In this document: positions 1-9,094 of the stretch, in pieces
How positions within the stretch are numbered: the first letter of the stretch is position 1
Layout of the letters: the number at the start of each line of letters is the position of its first letter
NCBI GenBank assembly: GCA_022605425.2
Contig: CM061247.1
Location: forward strand, 1,103,501 to 1,167,500
Reading direction: 5' to 3'
Source: Hamiltosporidium tvaerminnensis
Taxonomy: Eukaryota; Microsporidia; Dubosqiidae
DNA length: 64,000 nucleotides
The notes under the pieces: model-generated
What the model was told of the DNA's origin: nothing
Databases searched by the model: none
Seen by the model: only the letters and a program-made list of their open reading frames with translations
Program-made: the position numbers and the translations under genes

Positions 1-199
1 GGTGTTATGATTAGTAGTTGTTTTAAGGTTAAGATTGGGTTTATGAGTTGTATTAAAGGGGTGTTGTTTAATATTAGTGTTGTTAACCCCCTGTTGTAGA
101 TTAGTAGTATTATTAACACCCTCTTGTTTAATAGTAGTGTTGTTAACACCCTTTATATTAATACTCTTATCATTAACACCCTTTATATTACTACTCCTT
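1..199 (-). CDS. Continuation of the PIKK gene in a shifted frame, running off the window
   Basis: Downstream of the apparent stop at 191, the minus strand is open to the window edge in another frame. It encodes more of the same units (S-S-N-I-K-G-V-N-D-K, then Q-Q-G-V-N-N and H-P-F-N). The switch coincides with a one-base insertion at about 198 relative to neighbouring units. The rest of the gene, including any kinase domain, should be in the adjoining sequence. Confidence 0.55.
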
Positions 200-3100
200 A
201 TCGTTAACACCCTTTATATTACTACTCTTATCGTTAACACCCTTTATATTACTACTCTTATTACTAACACCCTTTATATTACTACCTTTACCATTAACGC
301 CCTCTAATCCAATCTCTTTATTATTAACACCCTCTAATCCTATCCCATTATTATTAACACCCTCTAATCCTATCCCTTTATTATTAACACCCTCCAACAT
401 ATCCTCTCCCTTTACACCCTTAACACACCTGTTAATTATATTTTCCCTTTTTAATTTCCCAATACTTACAAAATACTTACTTAACACCCCAACATCATAT
501 AAAACCTTTTTACATAAAGAATTAACACCCTTTAATATACTATCTATTCTCTTCCTAACATCAGTGTTAGTAGAATTAATAGAAATAAGAGTGTTATAAG
601 TACATTTATAAGGTAAATTATTGAGCATTCTTGTTAGTAATAAGGATATGTTGTTAACAATAGAAATATCTGTGTGTGATAGTTTAGAAAGTATTTGGGA
701 ATAAAAAGGTAAGAAATAAGATATAGGAGTGTCAGTAAAGAAGGTGTAAAGGGTCGATGTAGTAGTATTAAGAGGGTGTTGTTTATTAGGGTTATTATTA
801 ACACCCTTTAGGTTACTAGTATTATTATTAACACCCTGTTGTTTATATGTACTATTATTAACACACTTTAGGTTACTGGTATTATTACTAACACCCTTTA
901 GGTTACTAGTGGTTGTATTAACACCCTGTTGTTTATATGTACTATTATTAACACCCTTTAGGTTAGAGGCGGTCGTTTTAACACCCTTTATCCCTATACT
1001 ACTGTCACTAACACCCCCTACCCCTAGCATATCACCCCCTGTTAATATCTCACAGTATATATGTAAAATAACAGGTATTGTCTCATAAACATACTTATTT
1101 CCATACTTAACACTTTCTATATATGACTGTAGTGATATAAAGGGTGATATTATATAAAAATATTTACCTTTTAAATAAAACATCTTTTCACTGTTTAACA
1201 TACGTTTATGTATGTTATTCCATAGAATTGTATCTTGTTTTATTTTTGTCTGTAATAACACAGATTTATTATAATAAATATAAGAGGTGTTATTATTGTT
1301 AGTTATAGTATTGTCGTTAAAGGGGTGATAAGTATTAGTACTGTTGTTAATAGGGTGATAAGTATTAGTACTTATATTAACAGGGTCTTGTTTATAGGTA
1401 CTGTTATTAACAGGGTCTTGTTTATTAGTACTTATATTAACACCCTGTTGTTTAGTATCCCTATAATTAACACCCTGTTGTTTAGTATCCCTATAATTAT
1501 CACCCATATAATTACTATCCTTATAATTAACACCCTCTAATATACTTATAAGTCTATTTATACATTCTAATGCTTTTCTTTTTCTATTAATAGTTAAATA
1601 ATACTTACTTTGTTCATATAACACTATAAAGTTATTATTAAGTAATTCTTCTACAATTTCTTCATTAAATAAGTCATATTGTTTATTTAAACGTAAATGT
1701 TTTAATCTAAGAACTTTTAAATATGAAAGATAAGAGGTAAGAAGGTAGGGGGGTGTTATATTACTAGATAGATTGTTAAAGGGGTGTTGTTCATAAAGTG
1801 TGTTATTAAGAGGGTTTTGTTCATAGAGTGTGTTTTTAAGAGGGTGTTGTTCATAAAGTGTCTTATTAAGAGGGTTTTGATTACTAGACTGATAGTTAAA
1901 GGGGTGATAATTATTGGTATTGTTATTAAAGGGGTGTTGATTACTACTCATATTACTAACACCCTTTAAATTACTACTAATATTACTAACACCCTTTAAA
2001 TTGCTACTAATATTACTAACACCCTTTAGATTACAACTCATATTACTAACACCCCCTATATTACTTATATAACTATTTATAAGGTTAATACTATAATCTA
2101 TAAGAATGGGGTTATTATTATCTAAACTTCTTCTAATAATTAAAGGGGTTATATTATTAGTCTCTTTAAGTATATGAATATCACCTATTAAATGTAATAA
2201 TTCTTTAGAATAAAGGGTGTTAGTATTAAGAGTATCTATAGTACTGTTAATAAAGGGGTGATGGGTATTATTGTTAATAAAGGGGTGATGAGTGTTTGTA
2301 TTGTTAAAGGGGTTATAATTGCTAGTATTGTTGTTAAAGGGGTTATAATTACTACCTCTGGCATTAACACCCTTTATATTACTATCATTATATTTAACAC
2401 CCTTTAATATACTACCTTTGTTACTAACACCCCCTTTATTACTCCACTTTTCTAATTCCTTACTTATCTCCTCAATATCACCTTGTAAATTACTATCTTT
2501 AACATACTTTAAAACCTTATAAGCATATAAATATTTCCTTTCTAAACATAAATCATAAAACATTTTCATATTTATATTTATCATATTACTAACACCCTTT
2601 AAACTATAATAGTCTTGTATTTTAAAATATAGAAAAGCTAATTTATCATAAAAGGGTGATAAAGAAGAAGAAGGGGTGTTAATATGGTTATAATTACCAG
2701 GTGTGTTGTTAAAGGGGTGATAATTATATGGTGTATTGTTAAAGGGGTGTTGTTTATATGAAGTATTATTAACACCTTTTAAATTACTACCCATAACATT
2801 AACACCCTTTAAATTACAGTCCATATTATTAACACCCTCTAACATACTCTTATTAACACCCTCTAAAGTACTCTTATTATTAACACCCTTTATATTACTA
2901 CAACATTCCCTCTCTAATATAACACCCTTTATATTACTATCCTCATTACCCTTATAATCATTACCCTCTCTTATTATAATCTCTACTATACGTATAACAC
3001 CATATACATCATTAATAGTATTATAACACCTATAAACTATATTATCATCTATAATCTTAACACCTAACACATAATTCATTAAACCTATATATTTAACAAC

Positions 3101-4276
3101 CTTTCTATCTAATGAAAAAGACATATTATAAAGTAAGTCAATAAGGGTATTAAGAGTAGGGTTAATAGTATTGTTAACGGGGTGAATAGTATTAGTAGTG
3201 TTAAGACCCTTTATATTACTATCTCTATTATTAACACCCTTATAACTACTATCCTTATTATTAACACCCCCTACCATACTCTTATCCCTAACACCCTTAT
3301 AATCATCACTATTATTATTAACACCCCCTACACCCTTTAACATACTCTTATCCTTAACACCCTTATAACTAGTATCCTTATTATTAACACCCCCTACTCT
3401 GTCTAATCCATTACCACCCCCTCCATTACCCTTTAATAACCCACTGTTATATAACACCTTTATTCCTATATAAGTATAAAACATAGAAATATTAGGGTTA
3501 AGTAGAGTACCATAAGAAAGTAAATTATAATAAGAATATAGGGTGTTATTATATAGTAAAGATAATATAATATTTAAAAGGTTAGGAATTATATTATTAA
3601 AGGGTATTTTAGCTATGTCCCTACTATAACACCCTTTAGTATCAGTATTATAAGACCCTTTACTATTACTATAATAACACCCTTTGGTATCAGTACGATA
3701 ACACCCTTTAGTATCAGTATTATAAGACCCTTTACTATTACTATTATAACACCCTTTAATAATCTCTTTACAATAACACCTACTATCCTTACATTTACTC
3801 TCCCTTCTATTATAACACCCTCTTCTACTATCATTACTAGGAATAAAGTAATGTGTATCTTTAAAATGTATAATTCTATTAATAACACCCTTTTCTAATA
3901 CATTTATATCTGTCATAGTTTTAAGTGTCTGTTGTATTACAAAGAATAGAATATCTTGTTCTTTATAATTTTGTAGAAGTAAAATATTTTCTAATAAGTA
4001 TTTACAGGTGTTATTTATAGAACAGTCTTTAGGAAGAGAAATTGGAGAATTAGAGTGATTAAGAGGGTTATAAGTAGTAGTAAAGTTAAAGGGGTGACAT
4101 TTATATGGTATGTTGTTAACACCCTGTTGTTTATTAGTAGTGGTATTAACAGGGTGTAAGGTATCAGATAGATCGTTAACACCCTGTTGTTTATTAGTAG
4201 TGGTATTAACAGGGTGTAAGGTATCAGATAGATCGTTAACACCCTGTTGTTTATTAGTAGTGTTATTAACACCCTT
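191..4276 (-). CDS. FAT-region part of the PIKK (ATR/Mec1-type) gene, with in-frame 30-bp repeats
   Basis: The frame is open from 4276 to 191. The ATG at 3916 is internal, since coding-like sequence continues upstream of it without a stop. Unique segments alternate with K-G-V-N-N, Q-G-V-N and H-P-F-N-N decapeptide arrays. Two C-terminal segments resemble the ATR/Mec1 FAT domain as I know it. The first (about 1045-1185) has S-V-K-Y-G-N-K-Y-V-Y-E-T-I-P and a Leu-rich follow-on, like the conserved segment after the TPR-like FAT repeats. The second (about 560-755) has a Q-I-L-S-K-L-S-H-T motif, a long helix, and then an R-K-R-I-D-S-I-L tail. Mec1/ATR initiates the DNA-damage and replication checkpoint in the nucleus with an Ddc2/ATRIP partner. 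The kinase and FATC domains should lie left of position 1. Tel1/ATM, Tra1 and TOR are less likely alternatives. The frame stops at 191 because of one extra base (CTCCTTA versus CTCTTA in adjacent units). Confidence 0.7.
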   Translation of the reverse strand, partial: KGVNNTTNKQQGVNDLSDTLHPVNTTTNKQQGVNDLSDTLHPVNTTTNKQQGVNNIPYKCHPFNFTTTYNPLNHSNSPISLPKDCSINNTCKYLLENILLLQNYKEQDILFFVIQQTLKTMTDINVLEKGVINRIIHFKDTHYFIPSNDSRRGCYNRRESKCKDSRCYCKEIIKGCYNSNSKGSYNTDTKGCYRTDTKGCYYSNSKGSYNTDTKGCYSRDIAKIPFNNIIPNLLNIILSLLYNNTLYSYYNLLSYGTLLNPNISMFYTYIGIKVLYNSGLLKGNGGGGNGLDRVGGVNNKDTSYKGVKDKSMLKGVGGVNNNSDDYKGVRDKSMVGGVNNKDSSYKGVNNRDSNIKGLNTTNTIHPVNNTINPTLNTLIDLLYNMSFSLDRKVVKYIGLMNYVLGVKIIDDNIVYRCYNTINDVYGVIRIVEIIIREGNDYKGNEDSNIKGVILERECCSNIKGVNNKSTLEGVNKSMLEGVNNMDCNLKGVNVMGSNLKGVNNTSYKQHPFNNTPYNYHPFNNTPGNYNHINTPSSSLSPFYDKLAFLYFKIQDYYSLKGVSNMININMKMFYDLCLERKYLYAYKVLKYVKDSNLQGDIEEISKELEKWSNKGGVSNKGSILKGVKYNDSNIKGVNARGSNYNPFNNNTSNYNPFNNTNTHHPFINNNTHHPFINSTIDTLNTNTLYSKELLHLIGDIHILKETNNITPLIIRRSLDNNNPILIDYSINLINSYISNIGGVSNMSCNLKGVSNISSNLKGVSNISSNLKGVSNMSSNQHPFNNNTNNYHPFNYQSSNQNPLNKTLYEQHPLKNTLYEQNPLNNTLYEQHPFNNLSSNITPPYLLTSYLSYLKVLRLKHLRLNKQYDLFNEEIVEELLNNNFIVLYEQSKYYLTINRKRKALECINRLISILEGVNYKDSNYMGDNYRDTKQQGVNYRDTKQQGVNISTNKQDPVNNSTYKQDPVNISTNTYHPINNSTNTYHPFNDNTITNNNNTSYIYYNKSVLLQTKIKQDTILWNNIHKRMLNSEKMFYLKGKYFYIISPFISLQSYIESVKYGNKYVYETIPVILHIYCEILTGGDMLGVGGVSDSSIGIKGVKTTASNLKGVNNSTYKQQGVNTTTSNLKGVSNNTSNLKCVNNSTYKQQGVNNNTSNLKGVNNNPNKQHPLNTTTSTLYTFFTDTPISYFLPFYSQILSKLSHTDISIVNNISLLLTRMLNNLPYKCTYNTLISINSTNTDVRKRIDSILKGVNSLCKKVLYDVGVLSKYFVSIGKLKRENIINRCVKGVKGEDMLEGVNNKGIGLEGVNNNGIGLEGVNNKEIGLEGVNGKGSNIKGVSNKSSNIKGVNDKSSNIKGVNDKE
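4116..4265. repeat. 60-bp higher-order repeat alternating CCC-core and GGG-core units
   Basis: Two nearly identical 60-bp blocks (4116-4175 and 4176-4235) and a half block follow each other. Each block is one TTAACACCCTG unit followed by one TTAACAGGGTG unit, so opposite-polarity cores can be amplified together as a dimer. Confidence 0.9.
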
Positions 4277-4289
4277 TTATATTACTATC

Positions 4290-4645
4290 CTAATCATTAA
4301 CACCCTTTATATTACTATCCTTAACATTAACACCCCCTAACATATCCCTACTATACTTAACACCCCCTTCATCCATACTACTACCTCTAACACCCTTTAT
4401 TCCTATACTACCCATTATTACTAACATATAAGAACAATCTATATTTTTATAAATATTATATACTTCTAACACCCTTATATATATTTTATAAATAGTCTTT
4501 TGTAAAGGGGTGTTATTATTATAAAGAGAAATAAATCTAATTATAAGGGAACTAACACTATCCTTGTTTAAAGGGGTGTTATTATCAGTAGTATTATCTA
4601 ACGGGGTGTTATTATCAGTAGTATTATCTAATGGGGTGTTATTAT
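4290..4645 (-). CDS. Middle fragment of the same PIKK gene
   Basis: In this frame the repeat pattern (N-N-T-P-L-D-N-T-T) carries on from the upstream part. It is followed by a unique helical segment (about 4440-4560) and then more K-G-V units. It ends at TAG (4290-4292), where neighbouring units have AAG, so a single substitution makes the stop. About 15 bp further on there is also one extra T in the CCC-TTT stretch (near 4275), shifting the frame into the last part of the gene. It has no plausible start of its own. I read it as the link between the two large open frames rather than a separate gene. Confidence 0.55.
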
Positions 4646-7600
4646 AGTGCTTTTATAATAAGAGGTGTTATTATCAGTACTTTTATAATAAGAGGTGTTA
4701 TTATCACTAGTATTATAATAACAACTATCACCATTACTACCCTTACCTAACCTTATATCACTACCACCCCTCTTATAATAACAACCATCCCTATTGTTAA
4801 GCACCATTAAAAATATACTTTTAACTTTACTCATAACAACACCTACTGTCTTACTTTCTATACCTTTAAGTAATTCATATATTATAATTATACATTCATT
4901 AACACTATTCTTATTACTTATTAAGTATTTAATATCTAAATAAGGATATATATTCTTTAAAGTGTAAGGTGCATACTTATAACACTGTGTGTATAACCAA
5001 CCAAAGAAAAGGGATTTACATGTAGTATTATTAAAGGGGTGTTGTTTATTAGTACTGTTGTTAAAGGGGTGTTGTTCATTAGTACTGTTGTTAAAGGGTG
5101 TTTGTTGAGTAGTACTGTTGTTAAAGGGGTGTTGTTTATTAGTACTGTCGTTAAAGGGGTGTTGTTTACAAGTACTATAGTTAACACCCTGTTGCTTATT
5201 ACTACTATAGTTAACACCCTGTTGTTCACTACTACTATAGTTAACACCCTGTTGTTTATTACTACTATAGTTAACACCCTGTTGTTCACTACTACTATAG
5301 TTAACACCCTGTTGTTTATTACTACTATAGTTAACACCCTGTTGTTCACTACTACTATAGTTAACACCCTTTAATATATCACTACTATTACCCTCCTCTA
5401 CCTCCCTACTATTATTATCACCCTCCTCATAATACCCTTTATAATACATCCTATAATAACACCCCCTTTCATTACTATAACATTCCAAATAAGGAAAAAT
5501 CTGATTAAAAAGTAAATCTAACCTATAAACAACATGTCCTAATATAACACGTATAAGACAATAAATACAAATATTTTTATTACAATACATTTTACTTTTA
5601 AATAATATAACACTTATATTTCTATAAATAATATTTGATATATCAATATAATTATAAAGAATGTAATAATCTGTATTGTTAGATATTAAAAGTAATAAAA
5701 TATCTATTTTATGGTTTTTTATTATTTTTGATATGTGTGTGTTAAGTATATATGTTGTATGTATGTTGTTTGTTATGTAATATGACAGTATAAAGTGTAT
5801 GTTATTATAAAGTAGGTTGTATAGAGGTAAGGTAGTATTGTTGGATAGAGATGGGGATAGGGTGTTAGTAATAGTAGTGTTATTAAGAGGGTGTTGTTGT
5901 ATATTGTTATTAAGAGGGTGTTGTTCTATATTGTTGTTATTAACAGGATGTTGTTTATCAGTAGTGTGATTAAGAGGGTGTTGTTTATTTGTAGTATAGT
6001 TAACAGGGTGTTGTTTATCAGTAGTGTTGTTAACAGGGTTATAATTATTTTTTATATCATTAACAGGGTTATAATTACTACCCTTATTATTAACACCCTC
6101 TAATCTACCCTTATAATTAATACCCCCTGATATATCACTACTGTTACTAATGGGTGTTATTATATGTCTATAAATAACAGGTGCTATTATATACATATAT
6201 TCCTTATTAAATTCTTCTACTGTTATATCAAGTAAATAACATATTTTAATAAATATATTATCAATATTATATAAAGGGGTGTTAATTATAAGGATATATT
6301 CTAATATCATATTAAGTATTTTTATAAAATAAGTTTTTCTTTTAGAAAATGTATATTTAACAATGAGTGATAGGTAGGTGGTATTAGAGGGGTGATAATT
6401 AGTAGTATTGTTGTTAAAGGGGTGATAATTACTAGTATCCTTGGTAGAGGGGTGATAATTACTAGTATTATCATTAACACCCTGTTGTTTATTAGTATTG
6501 TTACTAACACCCTGTTGTTTAGTAGTATTGTTACTAACACCCTGTTGTTTATTAGTATTGTTGTTAACACCCTGTTGTTTACTATTATTATTACTAACAC
6601 CCTTTATATCCCTATACCAATCACTACTGTCATTAATACCCTCTAATATATCCTCTTCCTTGAATAACCCATACTTACTTATTCCATTATAAATAACAAC
6701 AAAACTAGAAAAAGCTATTTTATCTGTAAAAGGTAAATTATTAACAATACGAAGTGTTGTTATAAACATATTAATATTATAATTACTATCTATATACTTT
6801 AAAACCCCTATAATTAACTGTTCAATTTCTATATTTATTTTTATATTTTTATATATATTTAAAAGGGTGTTATATTTATAAGTAGATTGTAATATTTTAG
6901 TAAGAGTAACAGGTGTTATTGTAGTGTGTAATATTGTATGTAGGATATATGGGGTGTTAATATCAGTACTTATATTTAAAGGGTGTTGTTTATCAGAATT
7001 GTTATATAAAGGGTGTTGTTTATCAGGGATATGGTTAACAGGGTGTTGTTTATCAATATTGTCAATAATACCCTTTAATCTACTACTTTTACTAATACCC
7101 TTTAATCTACTACCTTTATCATTAACACCCTGTTGTTTACTAGTACTGTCAATAACACCCTTTAATCTACTACCGTTATCATTAACACCCCCTATAATAT
7201 CCCTATTAATAACACCCCCTTTACTACCACTATTAATAACACCCTCCCCCACAATTCCTCTACCTATATCACCCCCTATCTTATTCTTATAATAAGTGTT
7301 ATGTGTATTAAAAAACAATATAAGGTTATTTAAAGGGGTGTTACACTTTATACAATAAGTATAAGAATATGATATACTATAACATATAAATAAAGGGGTG
7401 TAATTAAGTAAATTAGGATTTACTATCTGTAAAGGGTTTATATAAGGAAGTAAAGGACTAAAAGGTATAGTAGTATTGTTTATGCAAGAATTTAGGGTTA
7501 CAGTAGGGTTACCATTATTACTATTATCACTGCTACTGTTATTACTATTATCACAGTTACTGTTAATTAAAGTATTATTACTGTTATTACTTATATTACT

Positions 7601-9094
7601 GTTATTACTAATATTACTGATATAACTATTATTACTCTTACTACTAATCATACTCTTATTACTATTCAAACTATTATTACTAATCAAACTGTTATCAACC
7701 CCATCATTCTTGTTACCACATATATTCAAATGTAAAGGTTTATTGTTAAATTCCTTAAAAAAAGAATCTTTAGAGAAATACAAATCACAATATAAAATAT
7801 AAGAATTTACTTCTTCTTGTGTAACAGTATACGTAGAACATATTATAGACAATAATATATTTCTATATGGTAAGGTAGTGTTAGTATGTAAATATTTAAG
7901 AATTTCTTTATTATAGGAGTTATTAGAATTTTCTATGTCATTTTTAAAGGTTATTACTAGTTTTGTTAGAAGGTGTGTTATTAAAGGGAGAGAAGTGGTA
8001 GTAATTAAAGGTAGAGGTGGTAGAGGGGTGTTAATGATAGTATTGATGTTTAGAGGGGTGTTAATATCAAGGTTGGTGTTTAGAGGGGTGTTAATGATAG
8101 TATTATTATTAACAGGGTTATAACTATCAGTATTATAATTAACAGGGTTATAAGTATTAGTACTGTTATTAACAGGGTTATAAGTATTAGTACTGTTATT
8201 AACAGGGTTATAAGTATGAGTACTGTCATTAACAGGGTTATAAGTATGAGTATTATAATTAACAGGGTTATAACTATCAGTATTATAATTAACAGGGTTA
8301 TAACTATCAGTATTATAATTAACAGGGTTATAAGTATGAGTACTGTCATTAACAGGGTTATAACTATCAGTATTATAATTAACAGGGTTATAACTATCAG
8401 TATTATAATTAACAGGGTTATAAGTATTAGTACTGTTATTAACAGGGTTATAACTATCAATACTGTTATTAACACGGTTATAACTATCAATACTATAATT
8501 AACCCTTAAATAAGGATTATGAAGTATTAAGTTTGTAAAAATATAAAAATTATAAAAATGTAAAGAAATAAACGAATTAAAAGAAGAATCAAGGGGTGAG
8601 AGGTAAGAGAGTTGGATGTATGGTAGTAAAGGGTGGAGGTATGTGTATATATAAGGTGTTATTTCTATATTTGTAAGTATATATGTTAGTGTGTATTGTA
8701 AGGGAAATTTCTTAAAGAAAAGTGGGTTTTCTATATTTTTAGAGACAATGAGAAGTGTATTAACAAGGGGTGTGTTACTATGTATGTCAGTAGATATGTT
8801 AGTAGGTATGGTATTATGTATGTCATTAGGTGTGTTAGTAGATAGTGTATTATGTATGGTATTGGATAGGCTATTAGATATATTCTCGTTGATATTAGAT
8901 ATTCTATTACTTGTATTCTCATTGGTTTTATAAGGTTTTTGTTCGTTATTTCTGTTGGTAAGAATTTTCTTTAAAATTATTTTATAAACTTTTTTAGAAT
9001 GAAAGTTCTTTTCAATACAAAGTGATAGTACTGTTAATGGGTTGGTATGAGAAAGAAGATAAATTTTTAAGTTTTTAATGTAGGATCTGTTCAT
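4628..9094 (-). CDS. N-terminal part of a giant PIKK (ATR/Mec1-type) gene inflated by 30-bp repeats
   Basis: This open frame of about 1,490 codons has no recognisable catalytic domain. Between low-complexity blocks it has many short amphipathic helical segments rich in Leu, Ile and Tyr, as expected of HEAT-type alpha-solenoid. The blocks are decapeptide repeats of types N-P-V-N-Y-N-T-D-S-Y, Q-Q-G-V-N-Y-S-S and H-P-F-N-N-S-T-N-K-Q, plus an Asn/Ser stretch at about 7490-7700. I start it at the ATG at 9094, not at the in-frame TTG at 9115, because a CCC sits 12 nt upstream of that ATG. The frame ends early at 4628. One base appears to be missing at about 4645 relative to neighbouring 30-bp units, and restoring phase leads into the next fragment. 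I therefore read it as the 5' part of the gene whose 3' part covers 191-4276. The PIKK identity comes from the downstream FAT-like region. Alone, this part could only be called a repeat-rich helical protein. Confidence 0.7.
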   Translation of the reverse strand: MNRSYIKNLKIYLLSHTNPLTVLSLCIEKNFHSKKVYKIILKKILTNRNNEQKPYKTNENTSNRISNINENISNSLSNTIHNTLSTNTPNDIHNTIPTNISTDIHSNTPLVNTLLIVSKNIENPLFFKKFPLQYTLTYILTNIEITPYIYTYLHPLLPYIQLSYLSPLDSSFNSFISLHFYNFYIFTNLILHNPYLRVNYSIDSYNRVNNSIDSYNPVNNSTNTYNPVNYNTDSYNPVNYNTDSYNPVNDSTHTYNPVNYNTDSYNPVNYNTDSYNPVNYNTHTYNPVNDSTHTYNPVNNSTNTYNPVNNSTNTYNPVNYNTDSYNPVNNNTIINTPLNTNLDINTPLNINTIINTPLPPLPLITTTSLPLITHLLTKLVITFKNDIENSNNSYNKEILKYLHTNTTLPYRNILLSIICSTYTVTQEEVNSYILYCDLYFSKDSFFKEFNNKPLHLNICGNKNDGVDNSLISNNSLNSNKSMISSKSNNSYISNISNNSNISNNSNNTLINSNCDNSNNSSSDNSNNGNPTVTLNSCINNTTIPFSPLLPYINPLQIVNPNLLNYTPLFICYSISYSYTYCIKCNTPLNNLILFFNTHNTYYKNKIGGDIGRGIVGEGVINSGSKGGVINRDIIGGVNDNGSRLKGVIDSTSKQQGVNDKGSRLKGISKSSRLKGIIDNIDKQHPVNHIPDKQHPLYNNSDKQHPLNISTDINTPYILHTILHTTITPVTLTKILQSTYKYNTLLNIYKNIKINIEIEQLIIGVLKYIDSNYNINMFITTLRIVNNLPFTDKIAFSSFVVIYNGISKYGLFKEEDILEGINDSSDWYRDIKGVSNNNSKQQGVNNNTNKQQGVSNNTTKQQGVSNNTNKQQGVNDNTSNYHPSTKDTSNYHPFNNNTTNYHPSNTTYLSLIVKYTFSKRKTYFIKILNMILEYILIINTPLYNIDNIFIKICYLLDITVEEFNKEYMYIIAPVIYRHIITPISNSSDISGGINYKGRLEGVNNKGSNYNPVNDIKNNYNPVNNTTDKQHPVNYTTNKQHPLNHTTDKQHPVNNNNIEQHPLNNNIQQHPLNNTTITNTLSPSLSNNTTLPLYNLLYNNIHFILSYYITNNIHTTYILNTHISKIIKNHKIDILLLLISNNTDYYILYNYIDISNIIYRNISVILFKSKMYCNKNICIYCLIRVILGHVVYRLDLLFNQIFPYLECYSNERGCYYRMYYKGYYEEGDNNSREVEEGNSSDILKGVNYSSSEQQGVNYSSNKQQGVNYSSSEQQGVNYSSNKQQGVNYSSSEQQGVNYSSNKQQGVNYSTCKQHPFNDSTNKQHPFNNSTTQQTPFNNSTNEQHPFNNSTNKQHPFNNTTCKSLFFGWLYTQCYKYAPYTLKNIYPYLDIKYLISNKNSVNECIIIIYELLKGIESKTVGVVMSKVKSIFLMVLNNRDGCYYKRGGSDIRLGKGSNGDSCYYNTSDNNTSYYKSTDNNTSYYKSTIITPH
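5031..5390. repeat. 30-bp array with a switch of core polarity at 5181
   Basis: Units at 5031, 5061, 5091, 5121 and 5151 begin TTAAAGGGGTGTTG (TTAAAGGGTGTTTG at 5091). Units at 5181 through 5361 begin TTAACACCCTGTTG. The 30-bp phase does not change at the switch, and the tail (GTTTATTAGTACTGTTG-like) is shared. On the coding strand the decapeptide changes from Q-H-P-F-N-N to Q-Q-G-V-N-Y. Confidence 0.93.
8111..8500. repeat. Cleanest tandem array: 13 phase-perfect 30-bp units (GGG core)
   Basis: AACAGGGTTATAA recurs at 8111, 8141, 8171 and every 30 bp to 8471 (AACACGG in the last unit), with variants only in the tail (ACTATCAGTATTATAATT, AGTATTAGTACTGTTATT, AGTATGAGTACTGTCATT). The minus strand reads N-P-V-N-Y-N-T-D-S-Y and variants. 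The array is free of stops in several frames on both strands. Confidence 0.95.

What the first reader, a model, noticed from the sequence alone, without database searches (positions are those of the whole stretch)
1..9094. A checkpoint-kinase (ATR/Mec1-type) gene swollen by dozens of in-frame minisatellite units
Two unique segments near the 3' end (about 1045-1185 and 560-755) resemble the FAT domain of ATR/Mec1, while large blocks between helical segments are 30-bp repeats. An essential-type PIKK carrying arrays of Gly-Val and His-Pro decapeptides at some fifteen linker positions would be a striking case of repeat invasion of a conserved gene. The unit encodes exactly ten codons, which explains why expansions are tolerated. 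The N-terminal half is assigned by continuity, not by its own motifs.
Basis: partly seen in the sequence, partly recalled or inferred. Interest (0 to 1): 0.9.

Follow-up and report, generated by a model that had tools for sequence, protein, structure and literature searches.

The report
Checkpoint kinase gene packed with repeats
In a parasite of water fleas, the gene for a DNA-damage checkpoint kinase (ATR) is swollen by over a hundred copies of a short DNA repeat that keep the reading frame, and the same repeat sits at dozens of other places in its genome, other important genes among them, in a strikingly regular order.

Summary
The finding holds and is part of something larger. The genome matches Hamiltosporidium tvaerminnensis (21.64 Mb, 17 contigs). 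The predicted PI3/PI4-kinase domain and FATC lie just left of the window on the minus strand. The kinase frame scores ATR 194 bits, Mec1 159, other PIKKs at most 134. Three FAT-region blocks align colinearly with another ATR; mostly arrays fill the gaps. By my anchor rule the gene carries 121 units in 20 arrays, at least 1254 of 3455 residues; 119 ATR homologues, mostly C-terminal pieces, have none. As assembled it is four open frames; all three breaks fall in arrays. The N-terminal half found no homologue and rests on continuity. The repeat is genome-wide: 720 core sites, 46 loci in one search, among them Pol I RPA2, Prp8, INO80, TAF2 and myosin genes, but not an ATM/Tel1 gene. New rules: the core is a two-state switch, AACA-GGG-TGTT or AACA-CCC-TGTT, making the Gly-Val and His-Pro decapeptides; mixed arrays run GV first, HP last (136 of 171, 1 reversed, overlapping sets). 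In-frame inserts were reported for this isolate in 2009, but not this repeat in what I read.

The parts
1..213 (-). start of the open frame (486 aa) that continues left of the window into the kinase and FATC domains; window part holds the last array
   Evidence: L001:2256-3713
194..4276 (-). open frame ORF1, 1361 aa: FAT region, 9 arrays by the rule
4293..4652 (-). short open frame, 120 aa, of which 72 array
4631..9094 (-). open frame ORF2, N-terminal half, first ATG at 9094; 8 arrays; assigned to the gene by continuity only
440..715 (-). FAT-region block matching ATR protein P0002 250-341; Pfam PF23593 HEAT_ATR at 518-757
1049..1267 (-). FAT-region block matching P0002 145-217
1532..1708 (-). 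FAT-region block matching P0002 80-138
37..436 (-). array: 8 GV units in ORF1, then 4 GV and 1 HP units in the kinase frame; contains frame break 194-213
752..1042 (-). array, GV units then HP
1301..1534 (-). array, GV units then HP-type units
1760..2071 (-). array, 4 GV then 6 HP-type units
2234..2449 (-). array, 3 GV then 4 HP-type units
2693..2944 (-). array, 6 GV then 2 HP units
3215..3409 (-). array, 7 GV units
3622..3890 (-). 24-bp-period array, not counted by the anchor rule, in which the core is read in another frame (GGG TGT TAT, peptide KGCY) and its last base differs, so no stop
4043..4412 (-). array with alternating GV and HP units (the one mixed-order array in this gene), spanning frame break 4277-4292
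4557..4721 (-). array of NTPL-type units spanning frame break 4631-4652
5015..5386 (-). array, 7 GV then 4 HP-type units
5867..6115 (-). array, 1 GV then 7 HP-type units
6368..6619 (-). array, 5 GV then 2 HP units
6959..7261 (-). array, 5 GV then 3 HP-type units
8093..8503 (-). array, 12 NPVN or similar units by anchors (90% matches, period 30, 13.5 copies)

Best explanation
The locus is an ATR/Mec1-type checkpoint kinase gene of the microsporidian Hamiltosporidium tvaerminnensis, about 10.3 kb, interrupted at 14-20 linker positions by in-frame arrays of one minisatellite family that is spread over the genome. The family is defined by a short core with self-complementary arms, AACA-NNN-TGTT, whose loop is GGG or CCC; around it the spacer drifts from array to array. 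In coding DNA the unit is usually 30 bp, and the two loop states give Gly-Val (QQGVN) and His-Pro (QHPVN) decapeptides. Arrays grow and shrink by whole units through slippage or unequal exchange; steps of three bases, in frames without stops, at hydrophilic linkers between conserved blocks survive, so the kinase keeps its fold and carries long disordered loops. Shown: ATR identity of the C-terminal part, sharing of the family across genes, placement of arrays between conserved blocks, a two-state loop in register, GV-before-HP order, a one-unit difference from the sister species at one array. Inferred: that the four frames are one working gene, that the breaks are consensus errors of long-read assembly, that the N-terminal frame belongs to ATR, that the loops are disordered and tolerated, the slippage itself, and the route by which arrays reach new genes.
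For: Kinase PF00454 8e-42 and FATC 1.4e-11 at the C-terminus, HEAT_ATR 27.7 bits over a cut-off of 27 in the FAT region. Solved structures: ATR 193.8 bits, Mec1 159.3, SMG1 133.9, TOR2 130.8, Tel1 129.7. Best named homologues: H. magnivora (96% identical), then proteins named ATR, M1 or rad3, among them Gurleya and Hepatospora. P0002 aligns in order with ORF1 857-915, 1004-1076, 1188-1279 and with the kinase frame from residue 78; its gaps of 6, 32 and 4 residues correspond to 88, 111 and, across the frame break, about 160 residues, of which 64, 91 and 135 are array. 121 units; 0 arrays in 119 homologues. 40 of 40 other proteins found with ORF1 carry arrays and are named Hamiltosporidium. Loop triplets GGG 66, CCC 110, every other at most 2. 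Same-type spacing divisible by three in 478 of 515 cases inside open frames and 48 of 99 outside. Kinase frame outside the array 427 of 436 identical to H. magnivora while the array part covered differs by one ten-residue unit.
Against: The gene is broken into four frames as assembled, and breaks near cores are not clearly enriched: 21 of 36 frame transitions within 30 bp of a core against about 50% of carrier bases, so 3 of 3 in ATR does not prove assembly error. No homologue for N-terminal residues 713-845, no meaningful solved-structure match for ORF1, AlphaFold2 uninformative. No transcript or protein evidence for this gene was available. The inside/outside spacing test is partly circular because open frames were chosen for being open. 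Disorder of the arrays was not measured.
Confidence: 0.8

Rival explanations
1. The locus is a decaying ATR pseudogene: arrays expand freely because nothing depends on the gene, and the frame breaks are real.
For: Three frame breaks; breaks in the cluster loci are not clearly tied to arrays.
Against: 427 of 436 residues identical to H. magnivora in the kinase frame outside the array, GDRHGEN and HVDL motifs present by eye, FATC kept, long open frames. Genes such as Prp8, TAF2 and INO80 carry the same cores and are unlikely all to be dead (inference).
Confidence: 0.1
2. The arrays are remnants of a mobile element with inverted ends (a MITE-like or Rickettsia-palindromic-element-like DNA) that carries G-type units at one end and C-type units at the other, which would explain the fixed order.
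For: Order GV then HP in 9 of 10, 39 of 51 and 88 of 110 mixed arrays, reversed in 0, 0 and 1.
Against: C-type units are often in register with G-type units (26 of 61 G-to-C steps at exactly 26 bp, 9 at 56) and the loop is the part that flips; spacers are not clearly reverse complements (0.496 against 0.451 shuffled, versus 0.519 against 0.457 in the same orientation; the difference is small) and stay A-rich in both; RNA folding is only mildly stronger than shuffles (mean z -1.8 for 13 arrays against -0.44 for 11 unique parts); no array pair between different fetched genes reaches 95% identity over 60 bp. Target-site duplications were not tested.
Confidence: 0.15
3. Head-to-head growth: a telomerase-like or polymerase-theta-like activity extended both 3' ends of a break with a G-rich strand before joining, as in telomere fusions.
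For: It predicts G units first and C units last on either strand, as seen.
Against: It predicts reverse-complement spacers in the C arm and a random register at the join; the first is not clearly seen, and 35 of 61 joins sit at two preferred distances. The reported telomere repeat is TTAGGG.
Confidence: 0.05

Closest known systems
ATR/Mec1 PIKK family (human ATR, yeast Mec1)
   Same: Kinase domain, FATC, FAT-region blocks, best score to ATR
   Different: At least 36% of residues are lineage-specific repeat arrays; N-terminal part unrecognised
O. [quoted passage not shown] 2009, PMC2784321; section 10 read in full, other parts as passages)
   Same: Same isolate OER 3-3; in-frame inserts in conserved proteins, reported by RT-PCR (data not shown there) to stay in the mRNA
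   Different: 14 other proteins, 15-57 aa; the parts read do not say that inserts share a repeat; the three tubulin loci here, gamma-tubulin being on their list, have no core
Jeffreys-type minisatellite families with a shared core (recalled, no paper read)
   Same: Many loci share a short core while the rest of the unit differs
   Different: Here most cores in the fetched loci lie in open frames, 787 against 165 outside, many of conserved genes; they keep frame, and the core has a two-state loop and a fixed order
Rickettsia palindromic elements (recalled; review PMC10969869 seen only in the search listing)
   Same: One repeat family inserted in frame in many unrelated genes
   Different: Those are, as recalled, single palindromic elements of bacteria; here tandem arrays of a 30-bp unit in a eukaryote, and whole arrays are not clear palindromes

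Membership tests
ATR/Mec1 PIKK | PI3/PI4-kinase catalytic domain | tested here: met
   PF00454 8e-42, motifs GDRHGEN and HVDL by eye
ATR/Mec1 PIKK | FATC at the extreme C-terminus | tested here: met
   PF02260 1.4e-11, residues 457-486 of 486
ATR/Mec1 PIKK | closer to ATR than to ATM, TOR, SMG1, DNA-PK | tested here: met
   193.8 and 159.3 bits against at most 133.9; no tree was built
ATR/Mec1 PIKK | FAT region with ATR-type repeats before the kinase | tested here: met
   HEAT_ATR 27.7 bits over 27 and three colinear blocks; marginal on Pfam alone
ATR/Mec1 PIKK | N-terminal HEAT solenoid | tested here: inconclusive
   no homologue for residues 713-845, AlphaFold2 pLDDT 33 and 32
ATR/Mec1 PIKK | checkpoint kinase activity with a partner (ATRIP/Ddc2) | not testable with these tools
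   needs experiment
minisatellite | tandem units of about 10-60 bp | tested here: met
minisatellite | unit number varies | tested here: met
   one-unit difference between H. tvaerminnensis and H. magnivora at one array; single comparison between species, none within
MITE or palindromic mobile element | inverted terminal repeats | tested here: inconclusive
   G-to-C order fits, spacers not clearly reverse complementary
MITE or palindromic mobile element | target-site duplication | not tested
   no array-free ortholog DNA was at hand

The most novel reading that the evidence does not exclude
Hamiltosporidium has an unrecognised process that recognises the core AACA-(GGG/CCC)-TGTT and writes or rewrites polar arrays of it into coding exons across the genome: a two-state, invertible exonic element that has remodelled dozens of proteins, including the ATR kinase that normally guards against repeat instability, so that a weakened checkpoint may itself have let the repeats spread.
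Probability: 0.15. Interest if true: 0.9.

Novelty: new variant of a known kind. Interest (0 to 1): 0.7.

Why it matters
Microsporidia are known (from general knowledge) for protein and genome shrinkage; here conserved proteins (ATR, Pol I RPA2, Prp8, INO80, TAF2, myosin) have been swollen by one repeat family kept in frame. It gives a natural experiment on which linkers of large conserved machines tolerate long insertions, and the two-state loop with fixed GV-to-HP order is a rule that any theory of minisatellite birth and spread must explain. If the checkpoint kinase is weakened by the arrays, it also links repeat instability to its own guardian (speculation).

Tried and rejected
Spliced-out introns or translational bypass: not favoured, because arrays in open frames mostly keep steps of three and inserts in other genes of this isolate were reported to stay in mRNA (PMC2784321); not tested for ATR. 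Strong mRNA hairpins: weak signal only (that call left out the array at 4557-4652). Head-to-head growth and a pure inverted repeat: disfavoured by register and spacers, though the spacer test is close to undecided. Recent copying between genes: no pair at 95% identity or more over 60 bp among the fetched loci; the longest hits there are long shared stretches that are not arrays, transposon-like by eye; the best array hit among the 40 rows printed is 86% over 253 bp (L022 and L024). Assembly error as sole cause of frame breaks: not proven. AlphaFold2 of the two halves of ORF2 gave unusable models; no fold search was run. Alignment A1 put arrays against kinase columns and was not used further. 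Linking the 2009 inserts to this repeat: no core in three tubulin loci (which one is gamma was not determined by a call); the other listed proteins were not checked one by one. Literature: searches. One search found 44 papers with Hamiltosporidium and listed 40; of these I opened PMC10542269, PMC12449221 and PMC7313128 (outline or passages). PMC2784321 came (section 10 and passages). None of what I saw describes this repeat; most subscription papers are not held.

Full report
Where it is. The window is C2:1103501-1167500 of a genome of 21,638,905 bases in 17 contigs. Size and contig number equal the published H. tvaerminnensis assembly, 21.64 Mb in 17 contigs (PMC10542269, abstract and passages); the closest protein is from H. 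magnivora.

The gene. On the minus strand four open frames follow one another: 9124-4631, 4652-4293, 4276-194, and 213 to 1244 bases left of the window. The last holds PF00454 (8e-42) and FATC (1.4e-11). Against solved structures it scores ATR 193.8, Mec1 159.3, SMG1 133.9, TOR2 130.8, Tel1 129.7 bits; no tree was built. ORF1 holds HEAT_ATR just over its cut-off (27.7 against 27). P0002, a 692-residue JGI protein named ATR by its source (organism not given; microsporidian by inference), aligns in order with ORF1 857-915, 1004-1076 and 1188-1279 and with the kinase frame 78-486. In P0002 these blocks are separated by 6, 32 and 4 residues; in the window by 88, 111 and about 160, of which 64, 91 and 135 are array by the rule. 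The last gap spans a frame break, which ties ORF1 to the kinase frame. Residues 713-845 of ORF2 found no relative, ORF1 no meaningful solved structure (one match at E 0.085, inside an array), and two single-sequence AlphaFold2 models of ORF2 had mean pLDDT 33.3 and 32.1. The N-terminal half is therefore by continuity. Other PI3/PI4-kinase hits in the genome were only partly identified, so I do not claim that this is the only ATR gene.

The arrays. With a stated anchor rule there are 121 units in 20 arrays, at least 1254 of 3455 residues (36%); the rule finds 68 single anchors and 0 arrays in 119 ATR homologues with 72,032 residues, which are mostly C-terminal pieces. At most about 2200 residues are then unique, near the size of Mec1 (2368). 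The kinase frame outside the array is 427 of 436 identical to H. magnivora, and the part of the array that both cover differs by one ten-residue unit.

Not only ATR. GGGTGTTAAYRAYA occurs 720 times in the genome, 0 in the backward control. A 60-residue piece of one array finds 118 matches (150 of 304 candidates scored); 113 have no stop inside, and they fall at 46 loci on 15 of 17 contigs when matches within 10 kb are merged. A search with ORF1 found 41 proteins (7998 candidates scored); the 40 other than the query's own are all named Hamiltosporidium and all have at least one array. From 14 loci I scanned 14 proteins: 13 contain cores and 10 of those 13 have Pfam matches: PI3/PI4-kinase, DEAD helicase, Prp8, TAF2, SNF2 with DBINO (INO80-type), myosin, RNA polymerase beta-type, DCB of Sec7/BIG (24.6 bits, below its cut-off of 25.6), UCH, histone deacetylase; 3 have none. 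The 14th, L004, is an ATM/Tel1-type PIKK of 2464 aa (209.8 bits) with no core: large PIKK size alone does not bring arrays. The polymerase protein P0126, whose Pfam families are among those of L025, is Pol I RPA2 (625 bits against 305 for Pol II), with most of its array sequence between aligned stretches. These loci were chosen because they had cores, so they say nothing on how common carriers are; in the rest of this window (beyond the gene) three small clusters of two or three cores were found.

Two rules. First, between the arms AACA and TGTT in the cluster loci the triplet is CCC 110 times and GGG 66 times, every other triplet at most twice. The arms are reverse complements, so inversion of the 11 bp turns one into the other; CAA CAG GGT GTT reads QQGV and CAA CAC CCT GTT reads QHPV. 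Changes often keep register: G-to-C steps of 26 bp (26 of 61) or 56 bp (9 of 61), C-to-G steps of 34 bp (11 of 27). Second, GV units come first and HP units last. Mixed arrays ordered G then H: ATR 9 of 10, genome open frames 39 of 51, database proteins 88 of 110; reversed 0, 0 and 1; the rest alternate. The most in 1000 shuffles was 4, 10 and 17. The database set includes orthologues of two species and overlaps the genome set, so counts are not independent. At DNA level, with exact seven-base cores, the bias is weaker: 39 G+C+, 9 C+G+, 11 other of 59 (L003, a near-copy of L002, left out). Arrays of one type only are frequent (ATR 6 of 16, genome 31 of 82, database 52 of 162).

Frame filter. 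Same-type steps are divisible by three in 478 of 515 cases inside open frames of 150 codons or more and 48 of 99 outside, where 28, 29, 38, 40 and 46 bp occur; this is partly by construction. The G core is read in all three frames: 550, 66 and 24 times; in the third, where GGG TGT TAA or TAG would stop, the next base is T 23 times and C once, which the choice of open frames enforces, while outside open frames A, G and T are about equal. A visible case is the KGCY array at 3622-3890.

Mechanism. Slippage or unequal exchange changes unit number; selection removes steps that shift frame and insertions that break conserved blocks (inference). How arrays reach new genes, and why the order is fixed, is open. 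Inverted-end mobile DNA and head-to-head growth both predict the order, but spacers stay A-rich and are not clearly reverse complements (a small difference), whole arrays fold only a little better than shuffles, and no two fetched genes share an array at 95% over 60 bp. Core flip within an array followed by directional growth is my preferred guess.

Frame breaks. All three in ATR lie in arrays; in the spacing lists two of them coincide with a step that is off by one. The assembly rests on R9.4.1 nanopore and PacBio CLR reads polished with short reads, which I expect to be weak in arrays. Yet across 21 cluster loci and the window 21 of 36 frame transitions lie within 30 bp of a core, against 50% of carrier bases (some of the 36 are simply neighbouring genes). 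Real frameshifts cannot be excluded.

What is known. Corradi et al. 2009 (PMC2784321, section 10 read) described in-frame inserts of 15-57 aa in 14 conserved proteins of the same isolate, gamma-tubulin among them, and reported them retained in mRNA. The three tubulin loci here have no core. The longer mean gene length of this species is noted in PMC12449221 (passages). I found no description of this repeat, its loop switch or its order in searches; I opened four papers in part.

Noticed in passing
L004, L005, L006 (G000:C1:1612901, 1645229, 1681403): Three PIKK genes of 2462-2464 aa on one strand, 32-36 kb apart, with near-equal kinase scores; the one scanned (L004) is ATM/Tel1-type; none has a core.
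   Followed up: partly
L002 and L003 (G000:C1:1169092 and 1269358): Two PI3/PI4-kinase genes in opposite orientation with near-equal scores and similar array patterns (36 and 38 cores); L002 has a PIK-domain match below the cut-off.
   Followed up: partly
L016:3112-4525, L018:4304-4614, L019:4371-5073, L027:6326-6925: Arrays of the same core outside long open frames with steps of mostly 28-46 bp, each with its own spacer.
   Followed up: partly
L033 (G000:C7:494000-497200): A TCP1/CCT-type chaperonin frame of 796 aa swollen by other low-complexity inserts (SKDSNKDN and poly-N), so this genome has more than one kind of in-frame insert.
   Followed up: no
L025:2793-3126: Array with strictly alternating G and C cores (GCGCGCGCGC, steps 38 and 34-35), an exception to the order rule.
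   Followed up: no
P0003: An ATR-like protein filed under the louse Menopon gallinae and flagged UNVERIFIED_CONTAM ranks third among the hits, next to microsporidian ATRs; probably a microsporidian contaminant.
   Followed up: no
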